DNA from: Clostridia bacterium
GTDB taxonomy: Bacteria; Bacillota; Clostridia; Oscillospirales; Acutalibacteraceae
NCBI GenBank assembly: GCA_017513245.1
Contig: JAFXGK010000023.1
Location: forward strand, 25,225 to 89,224
Length of the DNA stretch: 64,000 nucleotides
Direction: 5' to 3'
Notes under the pieces: generated by a model
What the model saw: only the letters and a program-made list of their open reading frames with translations
What the model was told of the DNA's origin: nothing
The model's database searches: none
In this document: positions 60,436 through 64,000 of the stretch, in pieces
Numbering within the stretch: position 1 is the stretch's first letter
Layout of the letters: every line of letters begins with the position of its first letter
Position numbers and translations under genes: made by a program

Positions 60436-61176
60436 ATGAAACTACAGATCAAAGAATTTAGCCTTCTCACCGGTGTCAGCGTGCGCACACTGCATTACTA
60501 CGATGAAATCGGTTTGCTGAAGCCAAGTTTTGTAGATAAGCAAAATGGCTATCGGTTTTACGATGAAAATTCTCTTGAACGGATGCAGGAGATCTTGTTT
60601 TACCGTGAACTTGATTTTCCGCTAAAAAGCATTGCCGAGATCCTCGCCTCGCCGAACTACGATAAACAAAAAGCGCTTGCAGAGCAAAAGCGGCTCTTGA
60701 CACTGAAGAAAGATCGGCTCACACGGCTGATAGCAGCTCTGGAACAAGCAGAAAAAGGAGAGATCACAATGAGTGCATTTGACAACAGCGAATACGAAAC
60801 TGCCCGTCAGCAGTACGAGGACGAAGCAAAGCAGCGTTGGGGCGGTACGGACGCCTACAAAGAGAGCCAAGCAAAGACGGCCGGATACTCCAAAGACAAA
60901 TGGAATGACGTTCTCATCGGAATGAACGGTGTCTTTGCCGAGTTTGCCGAGTGTAAGAAATGCGGCGAGAGCGCCGACAGTGAAATGGCGCAACGGCTCG
61001 TGAAGAAACTGCAGGACTACATCACGGCGAATTTTTATCACTGCACCGATGACATCCTTGCAGGCCTCGGACAGATGTACGTCTGCGACGAGCGGTTCAA
61101 AAATAATATCGACAGCCACGGTGAAGGCACTGCGGAATTCGTTGCCGAAGCCATCAAAATCTATTGCAAAAAATAA
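60436..61176 (+). CDS. MerR-family regulator with TipAS ligand domain
   Basis: A 246-aa regulator from the ATG at 60436 with GAGGTG. The MerR winged helix spans residues 1-70 (FSLLTGVSVRTLHYYDEIGLLKPSFVDKQNGYRFYDENSLERMQEI), with a coiled coil at about 75-115. The C-terminal half is a TipAS (antibiotic-binding) domain: YEDEAKQRWGGTDAYKESQAKTAGYSKDKW and the end FYHCTDDILAGLGQMYVCDERFKNNID. TipAL-type proteins bind thiopeptides and induce multidrug genes. No target gene follows, so autoregulation or distant targets are likely. Confidence 0.93.
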   Translation: MKLQIKEFSLLTGVSVRTLHYYDEIGLLKPSFVDKQNGYRFYDENSLERMQEILFYRELDFPLKSIAEILASPNYDKQKALAEQKRLLTLKKDRLTRLIAALEQAEKGEITMSAFDNSEYETARQQYEDEAKQRWGGTDAYKESQAKTAGYSKDKWNDVLIGMNGVFAEFAECKKCGESADSEMAQRLVKKLQDYITANFYHCTDDILAGLGQMYVCDERFKNNIDSHGEGTAEFVAEAIKIYCKK

Positions 61177-61199
61177 AAAGTAAGTTATCATTTTTTCAA

Positions 61200-61234
61200 A
61201 TATTCACTCTACCCAAAACGGGTAGAGTGAATAT
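61200..61234. repeat. Perfect 15-bp inverted repeat before the island promoter
   Basis: ATATTCACTCTACCC, 5 bp, then its exact reverse complement. It lies 24 bp after the MerR gene stop and ends 1 bp before the -35 box of the next promoter. It may terminate MerR transcription (no T tract) or act as an operator; it could also mark an island edge. Confidence 0.65.
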
Positions 61235-61235
61235 G

Positions 61236-61264
61236 TTGACATAGGACTGTTCTTTCGTTATAAT
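61236..61264 (+). promoter_or_regulatory. Consensus promoter of the RNase III-like operon
   Basis: TTGACA, 17 bp, TATAAT: a perfect consensus sigma-A promoter, the strongest match in the window. Confidence 0.9.
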
Positions 61265-61270
61265 GAAACC

Positions 61271-61473
61271 AAGAAGGCGTATGAGTATCTAAACGGCCGG
61301 ACATAAAACAGGTGTGTTTGCATTTAACTATGCAAGTGGTTTTGTTCAAACACGAATGATTTATGTAACGCATTTTATATACTTGTGCCCGAATGGAGCG
61401 CACGGAATACGTGGGCTTTTTCGGGCTATCTTTATGCCTTCTTATAGAAAACTATAAGGAGGTTGTTTTTATT
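61271..61473 (+). promoter_or_regulatory. Long structured leader of the RNase III-like gene
   Basis: About 200 nt of untranslated leader. GTGTTTG and CAAACAC can form an outer stem, and GCCCGA pairs with TCGGGC around CGCACG-GAATA-CGTG plus a T-run, which looks like an attenuator. It also holds very short reading frames (ATG AGT ATC TAA near 61279, ATG TAA near 61364) and a 33-codon frame. It resembles leaders of inducible genes on Firmicutes mobile elements. Confidence 0.5.
61356..61457 (+). CDS. Possible 33-aa leader peptide
   Basis: ATG at 61356 opens a 33-codon frame (starting MIYVTHFIYLCPNGAHG) whose TAA at 61455 adjoins the AAGGAGG of the RNase III-like gene. The ribosome site of this frame is weak (CAAGTGG). 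Overlap with the attenuator-like hairpin suggests a leader-peptide role, but it may be chance. Confidence 0.3.
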   Translation: MIYVTHFIYLCPNGAHGIRGLFRAIFMPSYRKL

Positions 61474-62541
61474 ATGAACAACGAAATGCTAAAAAGGATT
61501 CAAGAGCAAATCGGATACCGTTTTAAAAATCCCGATTTGTTGCAACAAGCGTTTGTAAGACGCTCGTATTCAAAAGAGAACGGAGGCGAAAATAACGAGG
61601 TATTAGAATTTATCGGAGATAAGGCGCTGGATTTTATCATTGTTAAAAAACTTGCCGAAAAATACGGGTTCTTTGCAAATGAGTGCGAGGATTACGATTC
61701 GCACGAAGATTGGAATGAATTCATTTCCGAACACAGCGAAGGAAAACTTACCGAAATAAAGAAAAAACTTGTTTGTCGCGAAATGTTGGCAAGTAGAATC
61801 CGAATTTTCGGGTTTCAATACGAACTGATTATGGGCAAAAGCGATATAGAGCAAAATGTTCATGAGCGCGATTCAGTACAGGAAGATTTGTTTGAAGCCA
61901 TTATTGGTGCAGTTGCACTTGACTCAAATTGGAATATTGATGCGCTGATTACGGTTGTTGATTTAATGTTGGAACCCGATTATTATTTAGAAAACGGATT
62001 TGACGAAGAAGAAAATTATGTTGTTTTGCTTCAACAATGGTATCAAAAAAAGCATCGTAGAATCCCAGTATATGTGTTCCGCACAGAGCCATTGGGGTTG
62101 TGGAGTGCGCTAAACGGCACCAGAATTTATCATGGAGAGTTCGAATGCGAACTAGGGCTTCCCCCTCTCATAAATGGGTTTTGGGCGAAAGGAAAAACAA
62201 AAGCGGAAGCGAGGATGGCGGTTGCAAAACAGGCATACGAATATCTTGAAGAAAATGACCTCTTATACGATTGGATTGATGAAGTAGGAGAACCCGAAAT
62301 TGATCGTGCTATCAATCAGCTTCAAGAACTTTATCAAAAAGGCTATATTGGCGAGCCGAGATATATTTTTGCCGAAAATTATGACAGTGACGGAAACCCT
62401 GTTTGGCGTTGCGAGTGCCATGTTGACGGTCAGGAAAATTATTGGTGGGGCGAGTATTCATCAAAGAAACAAGGTAAAAAAGCGGTCGCTTATGATATGC
62501 TTTGTGACGTTCTCGATTGGGAGGATGACGATGAGGCTTAA
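61474..62541 (+). CDS. RNase III-like endoribonuclease with two dsRNA-binding-like regions
   Basis: A 355-aa protein; the ATG at 61474 has a perfect AAGGAGG. Residues about 4-170 form an RNase III domain: NEVLEFIGDKALDF (Glu42, Glu45, Asp49) and EDLFEAIIGA (Asp138, Glu141). These match the E. coli residues Glu38, Glu41, Asp45, Asp114 and Glu117, so catalysis should be intact. Two C-terminal dsRBD-like regions follow (about 181-261 and 275-348), each ending in a Lys/Ala-rich helix (KGKTKAEARMAVAKQAYEYL; SSKKQGKKAVAYDML). Host RNase III has a single dsRBD and is about 230 aa. Composition is AT-richer than the genes to the left. It overlaps the XRE gene and lies in a tRNA-linked island. Confidence 0.87.
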   Translation: MNNEMLKRIQEQIGYRFKNPDLLQQAFVRRSYSKENGGENNEVLEFIGDKALDFIIVKKLAEKYGFFANECEDYDSHEDWNEFISEHSEGKLTEIKKKLVCREMLASRIRIFGFQYELIMGKSDIEQNVHERDSVQEDLFEAIIGAVALDSNWNIDALITVVDLMLEPDYYLENGFDEEENYVVLLQQWYQKKHRRIPVYVFRTEPLGLWSALNGTRIYHGEFECELGLPPLINGFWAKGKTKAEARMAVAKQAYEYLEENDLLYDWIDEVGEPEIDRAINQLQELYQKGYIGEPRYIFAENYDSDGNPVWRCECHVDGQENYWWGEYSSKKQGKKAVAYDMLCDVLDWEDDDEA

Positions 62542-62716
62542 AGAATTGCGTTTGCAAAAAGGAGTCACCCAACAAGAGGTGGCAAGAGCAATCGGTTGCT
62601 CCGCTAACAACTATGCCCGCTACGAAAGAGGCGAACACGAACCAGATTGTGCTACATTAAAACAGCTCTCGAAATTCTTCGGTGTTAGCATTGACTATAT
62701 TCTTTATAATGATTGA
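62531..62716 (+). CDS. Mini XRE-family HTH regulator
   Basis: A 61-aa protein that is a bare helix-turn-helix: MRLKELRLQKGVTQQEVARA, then GCSANNYARYERGEHEPDCATLKQLSKFFGVSIDYIL. The ATG overlaps the last codons of the RNase III-like gene by 11 nt in another frame, so translation is coupled. Such small regulators often control mobile-element or toxin-antitoxin operons. It may repress the consensus promoter upstream. Confidence 0.85.
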   Translation: MRLKELRLQKGVTQQEVARAIGCSANNYARYERGEHEPDCATLKQLSKFFGVSIDYILYND

Positions 62717-62730
62717 GAAAGGTTTTCGGA

Positions 62731-63741
62731 ATGATCGATATTAACGAGTATAAAGAGGAAAAGTGTTGCACATACAAAGGTGAGGAATATTTAGTTAGGG
62801 ATAATGGTGCGGTAATGAGAAAAGCCAGACCAACTTGTCGAGTTCGAAAACTTGATAATGAATGGACATTCGGTAAGGTAAATGTAAAAACCGGTTATCT
62901 TGAAATTGCGTCAGAACGCGTGCACAGAATTGTTGCAATGGCTTTTTTAGGTGATCCTCCAACGAAGGAACATATTGTTGATCATATTGATACGAATAGG
63001 CAGAATAACCGCCCAAATAATTTACGCTGGTTAACACGATTAGAAAATGTTGTTTTGAATGAAACCACGCGCAAAAGAATTGAATATCGAATTGGAGTAA
63101 GCATATTCGATTTTTTAAAAAATCCTCAAGCATATCGTGGCCTTCTGAATAGTTCTGAAGTCAGTTGGATGAGACGTGTAACAGAGGAAGAGGCTAAAAA
63201 CTGCCTCGAGAACACAAGAGCATGGTTGGAATCAAAACCAAAAGCATCTAGAACAAACGCCAAAATAGGCAACTGGATTTTTCAACCGCGGTCCTCATAT
63301 ACAACGCATACATTAGTAAAGGAACCAAATGTTTTTGAGGATAATCTCCAATCCAACATTACCGACTCTTTAACGCCAACAGCGAAACAAAAAGAATGGC
63401 GAACACCTACAATTTTCACCTGTTGCCCAACCACGATATCACAAAATCCAATGAACGATTATCTGGGAAATTTAGAAGAAGAAAAAGTGTTTTTTAAAAA
63501 TCAATACGGAGAAGCAAAAATCGTTCAATATGTATTAAACGCCGATAGCACAATTTTTGCTATCACATTTAATTCAGGTTCCCTAAAACCATTTGGTTTA
63601 GTTGAAGTGACGTTTGAAAATGGTTTTTATTTGCATGCCAGTCTTGGAACATTTTTTACTGAAGACGGTGCAAAAAAGCGATTCACTTTAGCCCAAGGGC
63701 TTGAATGGACCGGTAACGATAGCATCGACGACTATTGCTGA
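62731..63741 (+). CDS. HNH endonuclease with unknown C-terminal region
   Basis: A 336-aa protein from the ATG at 62731, with AAAGG upstream; a TTG at 62713 overlapping the XRE stop is an alternative. A short beta region (about 10-60) precedes the HNH motif: VHRIVAMAFLGDPPTKEHIVDHIDTNRQNNRPNNLRWLTRLENV, with His65, Asp84-His85, Asn92/93 and Asn97. This resembles phage/homing-type HNH enzymes. The C-terminal 200 residues are not recognised. It starts 14 bp after the XRE gene, so it is the third gene of the island operon. Confidence 0.82.
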   Translation: MIDINEYKEEKCCTYKGEEYLVRDNGAVMRKARPTCRVRKLDNEWTFGKVNVKTGYLEIASERVHRIVAMAFLGDPPTKEHIVDHIDTNRQNNRPNNLRWLTRLENVVLNETTRKRIEYRIGVSIFDFLKNPQAYRGLLNSSEVSWMRRVTEEEAKNCLENTRAWLESKPKASRTNAKIGNWIFQPRSSYTTHTLVKEPNVFEDNLQSNITDSLTPTAKQKEWRTPTIFTCCPTTISQNPMNDYLGNLEEEKVFFKNQYGEAKIVQYVLNADSTIFAITFNSGSLKPFGLVEVTFENGFYLHASLGTFFTEDGAKKRFTLAQGLEWTGNDSIDDYC

Positions 63742-63761
63742 TTAAGAAAACCAATAAAAAA

Positions 63762-63792
63762 GGAAGTCCGCGATAACGGACTTCCTTTTTTT
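63762..63792 (+). terminator. Terminator after the HNH gene
   Basis: A perfect 9-bp stem (GGAAGTCCG / CGGACTTCC) with a 6-nt loop is followed by seven T residues. Confidence 0.93.
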
Positions 63793-63811
63793 GGTCGAAG
63801 TGCGGAGACTC
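63789..63811. repeat. Copy 1 of a 23-bp direct repeat of the tRNA-Pro 3' end (att-like)
   Basis: The 23 bp from TTTTGGTCGAAG through GGAGACTC are identical to 63953-63975, which is the 3' end of the tRNA-Pro gene. This copy is not part of an intact tRNA: sequence diverges right after GACTC. It fits an attachment-site duplicate left by tRNA-targeting integration. Confidence 0.7.
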
Positions 63812-63923
63812 TCCTCTCCGGCTATCGAACAGTCCACCGGACTGTTCTCCCAAACCCTTTGCTCGCTTCGCTCGCAGTGTTTGGAGGTCGTTTCTCGTCT
63901 CCTTTAAACTCAACTAAACTAAA
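63812..63923. other. Hairpin-rich noncoding segment between the two tRNA-end repeats
   Basis: No gene is seen. It contains GAACAGTCC-acc-GGACTGTTC (63827-63847) and a CCAAAC...GTTTGG stem around GCTCGC-ttc-GCTCGC (63848-63885). Such short GC hairpins recur in gut Clostridia genomes; here they may be an element end or a remnant. Confidence 0.5.
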
Positions 63924-63951
63924 AGAACCAACCCCTCGGTTGGTTCTTTTT
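63924..63951. terminator. Hairpin next to the tRNA-Pro 3' end
   Basis: AGAACCAACC and GGTTGGTTCT arms with a 4-nt loop. T-rich flanks on both sides allow it to end the minus-strand tRNA transcript and any plus-strand transcript. Confidence 0.75.
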
Positions 63952-63952
63952 G

Positions 63953-63975
63953 TTTTGGTCGAAGTGCGGAGACTC
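63953..63975. repeat. Copy 2 of the 23-bp direct repeat, within tRNA-Pro
   Basis: Identical to 63789-63811 and overlapping the encoded CCA, acceptor stem and first part of the T arm of the tRNA. The copies start 164 bp apart. Confidence 0.7.
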
Positions 63976-64000
63976 GAACTCCGTGCCTCCTGGTCCCAAA
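63956..64000 (-). tRNA. tRNA-Pro(TGG), 3' part only
   Basis: The minus strand shows the 3' half of a tRNA running off the window. The encoded CCA is at 63958-63956, followed inward by discriminator A and acceptor strand CACTTCG. The T arm is CGGAG-TTCGAGT-CTCCG, then a 5-nt variable loop, the 3' anticodon stem CCAGG, and the loop TTTGGGA with anticodon TGG (63998-63996). The 5' half is outside, so the assignment rests on the anticodon and the typical Pro loop. Confidence 0.85.

What the first reader, a model, noticed from the sequence alone, without database searches (positions are those of the whole stretch)
61200..63990. tRNA-Pro-linked island: RNase III with two dsRBD-like regions, mini XRE and HNH nuclease
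Three tightly packed genes (overlap of 11 nt, then 14 bp) follow a perfect consensus promoter, are AT-richer than the genes to the left, and end at a duplicated tRNA-Pro 3' end. The RNase III domain keeps all five metal-binding acidic residues, but the protein is much longer than housekeeping RNase III because of a second dsRBD-like region. A dsRNA-cleaving enzyme, a repressor and a DNA endonuclease together could form a defence or selfish module. Defence function is inference; I know of no described system with exactly this trio.
Basis: partly seen in the sequence, partly recalled or inferred. Interest (0 to 1): 0.7.

Follow-up and report, generated by a model that had tools for sequence, protein, structure and literature searches.

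The report
RNase III with its own RNA
A double-strand-RNA-cutting enzyme found near bacterial defence genes and in prophages is preceded by a folded RNA, not in the public RNA library searched, that may control or partner it; this could point to an RNA-gated way of fighting phages, but no function has been tested.

Summary
The three genes are real (61474-63741), but the trio is not the unit: an XRE flanks the enzyme in 5 of 22 related loci, an HNH in 2 of 22 (three loci end at the enzyme). What is conserved was missed: a ~200-nt leader (61265-61473) between promoter and RNase III. It folds into a closing helix with two arms; in 19 distinct rows 88.7% of pair cells are standard and 48 of 60 pairs change on both sides. 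Three leaders tested have no Rfam match. In 391 and 398 genomes (partly the same) the four sites at E 1e-7 or better all precede this enzyme.

The enzyme (catalytic domain, apparently two dsRNA-binding domains) is not housekeeping: a separate rnc exists. Eight of 17 cellular loci lie near strong defence-gene matches; five viral contigs and one genome carry it beside serine recombinases.

Best reading: a mobile RNA plus RNase III module, probably anti-phage, the RNA gating expression and perhaps binding the enzyme, as in AbiF/RCd22. Function untested.

The parts
61210..61224 (+). Operator-like inverted repeat TACCCAAAACGGGTA, 11 bp before the -35 box; proposed XRE site
   Evidence: TAYCCAAAANGGRTA with 0-1 mismatch at 264-270 nt before the start codon in the 5 loci with the adjacent XRE gene; 2 or more mismatches, elsewhere, in the 16 other loci examined. 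Window: one match with up to 1 mismatch, 0.11 expected
61236..61264 (+). Promoter TTGACA-17-TATAAT
   Evidence: sequence; promoter-like sites in 11 of 22 upstream regions by a simple pattern, and in the alignment
61265..61473 (+). Structured leader RNA (model hit 61272-61448)
   Evidence: no Rfam match over it up to E 5
61273..61281 (+). Closing helix P1, 5' strand GAAGGCGUA, pairs with 61433-61441
   Evidence: helices 1 and 2 (77% and 93% of cells paired; 5 of 7 pairs with both-side changes)
61283..61386 (+). Arm A (bounds approximate): long irregular hairpin with GCAA tetraloop (61332-61335)
   Evidence: helices 3-8; GAAA loop in L056, L064, L136
61387..61426 (+). Arm B: second hairpin GCCCGA...UCGGGC
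   Evidence: helices 9 and 10
61433..61441 (+). P1 3' strand UAUGCCUUC; shares 61436-61441 with the hairpin below
61436..61463 (+). 12-bp hairpin that buries the ribosome-binding site (AAGGAGG) and is followed by a U-rich stretch; excludes P1
   Evidence: such a hairpin of 8 bp or more with a Shine-Dalgarno-like 3' arm in 19 of 22 upstream regions, 14 of the 19 with a U-rich tail; no background control run
61474..62541 (+). RNase III, 355 aa: catalytic domain (1-~165), dsRBD1-like (~178-262), dsRBD2 (~276-348)
62531..62716 (+). 61-aa XRE/Cro-C1 regulator
   Evidence: HTH_3 3.7e-17; adjacent in 5 of 22 loci
62731..63741 (+). HNH endonuclease, 336 aa (accessory; 2 of 22 loci)
   Evidence: HNH_3 6.6e-17, PADLOC homing endonuclease 1.4e-11; L007 60% identity
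63756..63791 (+). Intrinsic terminator-like hairpin after the HNH gene
   Evidence: 15-bp arms; T run
63786..63975 (.). Two copies (63786-63811, 63950-63975) of a 26-nt repeat holding a tRNA-like 3' end, possible att-like boundary
   Evidence: contig ends at 64000

Best explanation
A mobile two-part module: a dedicated structured RNA followed by an RNase III with two dsRBDs, carried as an anti-phage or superinfection cargo. One sigma-70-type promoter makes the RNA; many transcripts probably stop, or stay untranslated, at the hairpin that is both a terminator-like stem and a cover over the ribosome-binding site. When the closing helix P1 forms, it takes 61436-61441 away from that hairpin and the enzyme is made. 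The RNA is probably also a ligand or substrate of the enzyme (long stem, conserved tetraloop, dsRBDs), so that enzyme level or activity is set by the RNA and released when the RNA is lost or changed, for instance during infection. The active enzyme then cuts phage or host structured RNA. SHOWN here: the RNA and its covariation, its coupling to this enzyme in the genomes scanned, intact catalytic residues, a clade separate from rnc, defence-gene and phage settings of relatives. INFERRED: attenuation, RNA-enzyme binding, a phage trigger, and the defence role itself. In the window's subclade the small XRE probably acts on the inverted repeat at 61210-61224.
For: RNA: 48 of 60 pairs with both-side changes, 88.7% of cells paired, 0 of 500 shuffles as high, slid controls 37-47% (alignment fitted to the structure); unfitted MAFFT alignment of 7: 22 of 60, 91.6%. 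Coupling: full-length model hits in 20 of 22 long-form loci, a partial one in L064, L138 by eye only. Sites at E 1e-7 or better in 391 and 398 genomes (partly the same): 4, all before the enzyme. Separate rnc; long forms split from 16 housekeeping rnc at 100/99. Defence neighbours: Avs2 (L007), DrmMII, MzaE and DrmE_C (L008), type IV REase and ThsB-like TIR (L009), PDC-M33A/B/C (L010), PprDinG and PprRE of pPIWI-RE (L012), RT_VI (L052), Cas3/Cas8c (L053), MTase and PDC-S20 NTPase (L055). 92 neighbours gave 66 PADLOC families at 1e-40, 81 control ORFs gave 4. Viral contigs with tail or holin genes and serine recombinases upstream. Analogue: AbiF/RCd22 (PMC12373285; abstract and passages seen).
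Against: No expression, binding, toxicity or phage data exist for it. The window itself shows no defence neighbour on the left and its contig ends on the right. 9 of 17 cellular loci gave no strong defence hit in what was scanned. L063 and L064 lack a clear hairpin over the ribosome-binding site, L012 has it apart from that site, and no background control was run for that hairpin. Housekeeping RNase III is not known to me as a toxin, so a toxin role needs extra assumptions. R1 is insensitive: the class scan missed G181 and G313, which carry the RNA, and the scan of 16 carrier genomes missed 3 (G916, G1023, G181), so absence away from the enzyme is not firmly shown.
Confidence: 0.55

Rival explanations
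1. Plain autoregulation: the leader is only a cleavage site by which this RNase III limits its own mRNA, as the E. coli rnc leader does (recalled). The enzyme is an accessory RNase III whose role lies elsewhere.
For: RNA seen only in cis to the enzyme among strong hits; a long stem suits RNase III.
Against: Near-invariant loop positions, a closing helix that excludes the RBS hairpin, and conservation in 20 loci seem more than a cut site needs; does not explain the defence-gene setting.
Confidence: 0.3
2. Ligand-sensing riboswitch: the leader binds a small molecule or ion made or lost in infection and switches the enzyme on.
For: Aptamer-like fold plus alternative expression platforms: RBS hairpin in 19 of 22, a separate terminator-like hairpin in L012.
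Against: Riboswitch classes usually serve several gene families (recalled); here one was seen.
Confidence: 0.15
3. Phage housekeeping gene: a phage RNase III that processes the phage's own transcripts and reached islands by decay of prophages.
For: Copies in viral contigs L062-L066 and beside recombinases in L011.
Against: Lies at the recombinase end of those contigs, not among the structural genes; other copies stand beside defence genes.
Confidence: 0.15
4. First reader's trio (RNase III + XRE + HNH) as one defence or selfish unit.
For: Same order in L007 at 60-74% identity.
Against: XRE in 5 of 22, HNH in 2 of 22 loci (downstream not visible in 3).
Confidence: 0.06

Closest known systems
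AbiF (Abi_2) with ncRNA RCd22, C. difficile phage phi027 (PMC12373285)
   Same: Phage-borne; promoter, structured ncRNA, terminator, then the effector gene, co-transcribed by readthrough
   Different: AbiF is related to Cas13 ancestors, not RNase III; [quoted passage not shown] its antitoxin action is proven there, here nothing is
Type III toxin-antitoxin (ToxIN; passages of PMC12373285, start of abstract of PMC5772629)
   Same: RNA gene, terminator-like hairpin and ribonuclease gene in one operon
   Different: No tandem repeats in the leader; RNase III instead of ToxN; toxicity untested
Housekeeping RNase III (rnc, TIGR02191)
   Same: Catalytic domain and the five acidic residues
   Different: Apparently two dsRBDs, 328-378 aa, separate clade, below the NCBIfam cut-off (136.3 against 166.25 bits)
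Budding-yeast Dicer (S. castellii Dicer1; start of abstract of PMC4521922 in the listing)
   Same: One RNase III domain and two dsRBDs
   Different: Eukaryotic and of RNAi; sequence similarity weak and limited to the catalytic part (K. polysporus Dcr1 E 9e-4)
phrog_28637 (unknown function)
   Same: Best PHROG match of P0001, 1.3e-23
   Different: No described function

Membership tests
RNase III superfamily | RNase III catalytic domain with acidic metal-binding residues | tested here: met
   PF14622 5.5e-17; five residues invariant in 16 of 16
Housekeeping rnc (TIGR02191 equivalog) | Score above curated cut-off; only rnc of the genome | tested here: not met
   136.3 bits against 166.25; separate rnc at G000:C19
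Type III toxin-antitoxin | RNA antitoxin of tandem repeats before the toxin gene | tested here: not met
   no tandem repeat at 61100-61500 (window only)
Type III toxin-antitoxin | Toxin inhibited by the RNA | not testable with these tools
   needs expression tests
AbiF/RCd22 system | Abi_2 domain protein | tested here: not met
   no Abi_2 match in P0001
AbiF/RCd22 system | abiF RNA motif RF03085 | tested here: not met
   not among the matches up to E 5
Known riboswitch or ncRNA class | Match to an Rfam model | tested here: not met
   (3 of 22 leaders scanned)
Known defence system in PADLOC-DB 2.0.0 | Match of the RNase III to a defence model | tested here: not met
   only SIR2 at E 0.022
Cis-regulatory RNA switch | Mutually exclusive helices controlling RBS or termination | tested here: inconclusive
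   P1 and RBS hairpin share 61436-61441; switching itself not testable

The most novel reading that the evidence does not exclude
A new class of RNA-gated immune nuclease: an unlisted ~180-nt RNA family holds a Dicer-shaped bacterial RNase III (catalytic domain plus two dsRBDs) in check and releases it on infection. In its boldest form some islands join it to an RNA-dependent RNA polymerase (PF05183 protein about 1.1 kb from the enzyme in L137 and in the near-identical block L135; same contig about 17 kb away in G1054, the genome of L010) or to pPIWI-RE partners (L012), an RNAi-like division of labour in bacteria (that extension alone about 0.04).
Probability: 0.3. Interest if true: 0.9.

Novelty: new variant of a known kind. 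Interest (0 to 1): 0.72.

Why it matters
RNA-protein immune pairs are few (CRISPR, type III TA, AbiF, RT systems; list recalled). This would add RNase III, an enzyme family linked to RNAi in eukaryotes, and a new covarying RNA family, with clear tests. If it is only autoregulation, it is still a well-supported RNA element with an unusual bacterial RNase III. In the listings (titles and starts of abstracts; several of these lists were capped; open-access papers only, no preprints) I saw no description of such a pair; only PMC12373285 and PMC2743648 were opened, by outline and passages (PMC12373285) or passages (PMC2743648).

Tried and rejected
Trio as unit: rejected. Rfam identity of the leader: none in 3 of 22 leaders scanned. 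Leader elsewhere in viral contigs: two DNA patterns gave 57 and 1 stretches, 0 of 58 matched R1 at E 0.05, so chance. Leader in plasmids by blastn: no match. R. albus plasmid relative L061: 29% identity over 97% of the query, no RNA. Weak RNA hits at G214, G236 (22.7-23.7 bits) and G298:C2 (23.7 bits); the first two lie in chromosomal settings without the enzyme, judged by eye; taken as chance, the third not looked at. Distant proteins L058, L140, L141: no RNA found; L058 has under 160 bases upstream. L057, a 290-aa relative, has a partial match (24 bits). In-frame upstream extension of the RNase III (ATG at 61393): present in some relatives, absent in L009 and L010, so the start 61474 behind AAGGAGG is preferred. 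RdRP co-occurrence: 5 of 16 genomes with the enzyme against 9 of 145 others of the order, Fisher p 0.006. The 145 still include G000 and perhaps other carriers, three of the five are of one family, and islands cluster such genes, so it is a lead only.

Limits: the 22 loci are not independent (L135 and L137 share a 6.1-kb block at 96.7%, L009 and L010 share 1.5 kb at 92.6%; L052 and L053 are one contig). L062, L067 and L068 are identical and counted once. The PADLOC control stretches were picked by hand from 9 genomes of the set, not from those of L007-L012; only 25 of the 66 families were shown, and one protein can match many models, so family counts overstate proteins. The neighbours were hand-picked. 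For the tree 24 loci with possible housekeeping rnc were tried and the 16 whose rnc fitted a simple pattern were used.
Full report
Observation. The three genes, their spacing and the consensus promoter are as described. The genes have lower GC than their left neighbours. The window's right edge is the end of contig C38, so nothing can be said about what follows. The genome (1,715,845 bases, 51 contigs, 91.5% complete) has a separate 226-aa rnc in a housekeeping-looking gene row (C19; by eye) and a third RNase III-domain gene (C22), so the finding's first refutation test does not bite.

Relatives. Protein P0001 found 6 relatives in genome contigs (L007-L012). Profile A2 found 5 long-form copies in 4 other genomes among 391 of the class (G298 twice, G029, G181, G313; two further weaker relatives, G080 and G196, and many housekeeping rnc below them). 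Profile A7 found 5 new long-form genomes among 295 of the order (G995, G836, G879, G916, G1023; plus two weaker, G884 and G1034). Viral contigs gave 7 loci, three of them identical. With the window this gives 22 distinct long-form loci: window, L007-L012, L052-L056, L062-L066, L135-L139. The tree puts 23 long rows (L066 left out; L057 and L061 added) on one side of a 100/99 branch and 16 housekeeping rnc on the other; L061 and L057 have long branches.

What is conserved. XRE relatives adjacent to the enzyme: window, L007-L010 (5 of 22). HNH: window and L007 (2 of 22). Records L063, L065 and L066 end at or inside the enzyme gene, so 19 of 22 can be judged. The leader aligns in all 7 of the first loci, gives full-length model hits in 20 of 22, a partial hit in L064, and is visible by eye in L138, where the loop is GUAC. 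Model R1 was built from the first 7.

RNA fold. On the plain MAFFT alignment of 7, 91.6% of cells pair and 22 of 60 pairs change on both sides, against 12.5 in shuffles and 6-9 in slid versions. On 12 model-aligned loci 37 of 60, on 20 loci (19 distinct) 48 of 60 with 0 of 500 shuffles as high. The model-aligned sets lean towards the structure, and RNAalifold chose the structure from the same 7 sequences, but the later 13 loci were not used to build it. The apical UAU-GCAA-GUG hairpin is strongly conserved; GAAA replaces GCAA in L056, L064 and L136, as expected for a GNRA tetraloop; L138 departs. Rfam has no match over three representative leaders.

Coupling. In the class scan (391 genomes) 6 genomes had a hit at E 0.01: own, G298 (two sites) and G029 strongly, G080 weakly before its 318-aa-frame relative, and G214 and G236 weakly without the enzyme. 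In the phylum scan (398 genomes, partly the same) only the own genome had one at E 0.001. R1 misses true cases (G181, G313; G916, G1023, G181), so this shows coupling among strong hits only.

Expression platform. In the window GAAGGCGUA (61273-61281) can pair with UAUGCCUUC (61433-61441). The same 61436-61441 is the start of a 12-bp hairpin (61436-61463) that holds AAGGAGG and is followed by a U-rich tail and the ATG at 61474. Hairpins of 8 bp or more with a Shine-Dalgarno-like 3' arm occur in 19 of 22 upstream regions examined (that set includes L057 and not L066), 14 of these with a U-rich tail; L012 instead has a terminator-like hairpin apart from its ribosome site; L063 and L064 have none of this kind. 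That the two folds exclude each other follows from the sequence; that the cell uses them is inference.

Enzyme. The five acidic residues are invariant in 16 of 16. Residues 178-348 align to R2D2 and 276-344 to TARBP2; Pfam itself passes only the second dsRBD.

XRE and operator. TAYCCAAAANGGRTA occurs with 0-1 mismatch 264-270 nt before the start codon in the 5 XRE loci and not in the 16 others examined (best 2 or more mismatches, other places) (Fisher p 5e-5, but the five group in one weakly supported subclade, 89/64, and in two of the 16, L063 and L065, an XRE could not have been seen). The pattern was written from these five, so only its absence elsewhere and its fixed place are informative. 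A local repressor is the simple reading.

Setting. A fixed rule (up to three closed ORFs of 150 aa or more on each side, 17 cellular loci, 92 proteins) gave 66 PADLOC families at 1e-40, of which 25 were shown; 81 ORFs from 11 stretches chosen by hand in 9 of the genomes gave 4. Loci with strong defence neighbours: L007, L008, L009, L010, L012, L052, L053, L055 (8 of 17; hand-picked neighbours). In L011, L063, L064, L065 and L066 a large serine recombinase gene directly precedes the leader; in L062 two small genes lie between. Tail, structural or holin genes were found upstream in L062, L063, L064 and L065; the one L066 gene tested had no match. L135 and L137, from different genera, share 6.1 kb at 96.7%, which suggests recent transfer.

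Function. The arrangement promoter, structured RNA, hairpin/terminator, effector gene, in phage-like contigs, is that of AbiF/RCd22, where the RNA lowers expression by premature termination and binds the protein (PMC12373285: abstract and passages seen). I therefore rank an RNA-gated anti-phage nuclease first (0.55 in the broad form), simple autoregulation second (0.3). These readings overlap in part, so the odds need not sum to one. Features of type III TA (tandem repeats) and of AbiF (Abi_2 domain, RF03085) were tested in the window and not met, so I do not file it in either family; it may still work like them.

Noticed in passing
L137:10151-12400 (-) and L135:3391-6519 (+): A protein with PF05183 (cellular-type RNA-dependent RNA polymerase, 9.3e-15 in the 1042-aa L135 frame) and a DYDGD motif lies about 1.1 kb from the RNase III, convergent to it, with a 320-aa frame between. 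PF05183 matches in 5 of 16 genomes with the enzyme against 9 of 145 others of the order, a set not cleared of carriers.
   Followed up: partly
L011:9104-10507 and L062:9068-10477: A ~468-aa protein family (37% identity) with no Pfam match over cut-off follows the RNase III in two loci.
   Followed up: partly
L012:8998-9675: A Thg1-like (tRNA-His guanylyltransferase, 8.8e-13) gene directly follows the RNase III, with pPIWI-RE partner genes further on.
   Followed up: no
window 60436-61176; L009:4052-4789; L010:3019-3756: A MerR/TipAS regulator (about 71% identity) lies near the module in three loci in different arrangements.
   Followed up: no
L052 and L053 (G298:C20): One contig carries two copies of the module about 14 kb apart, with an RT_VI-type reverse transcriptase and Cas3/Cas8c genes.
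   Followed up: partly
G000:C22:73832-74125: Third RNase III-domain gene of the genome in a 130-aa frame, mini-III-like by size.
   Followed up: no
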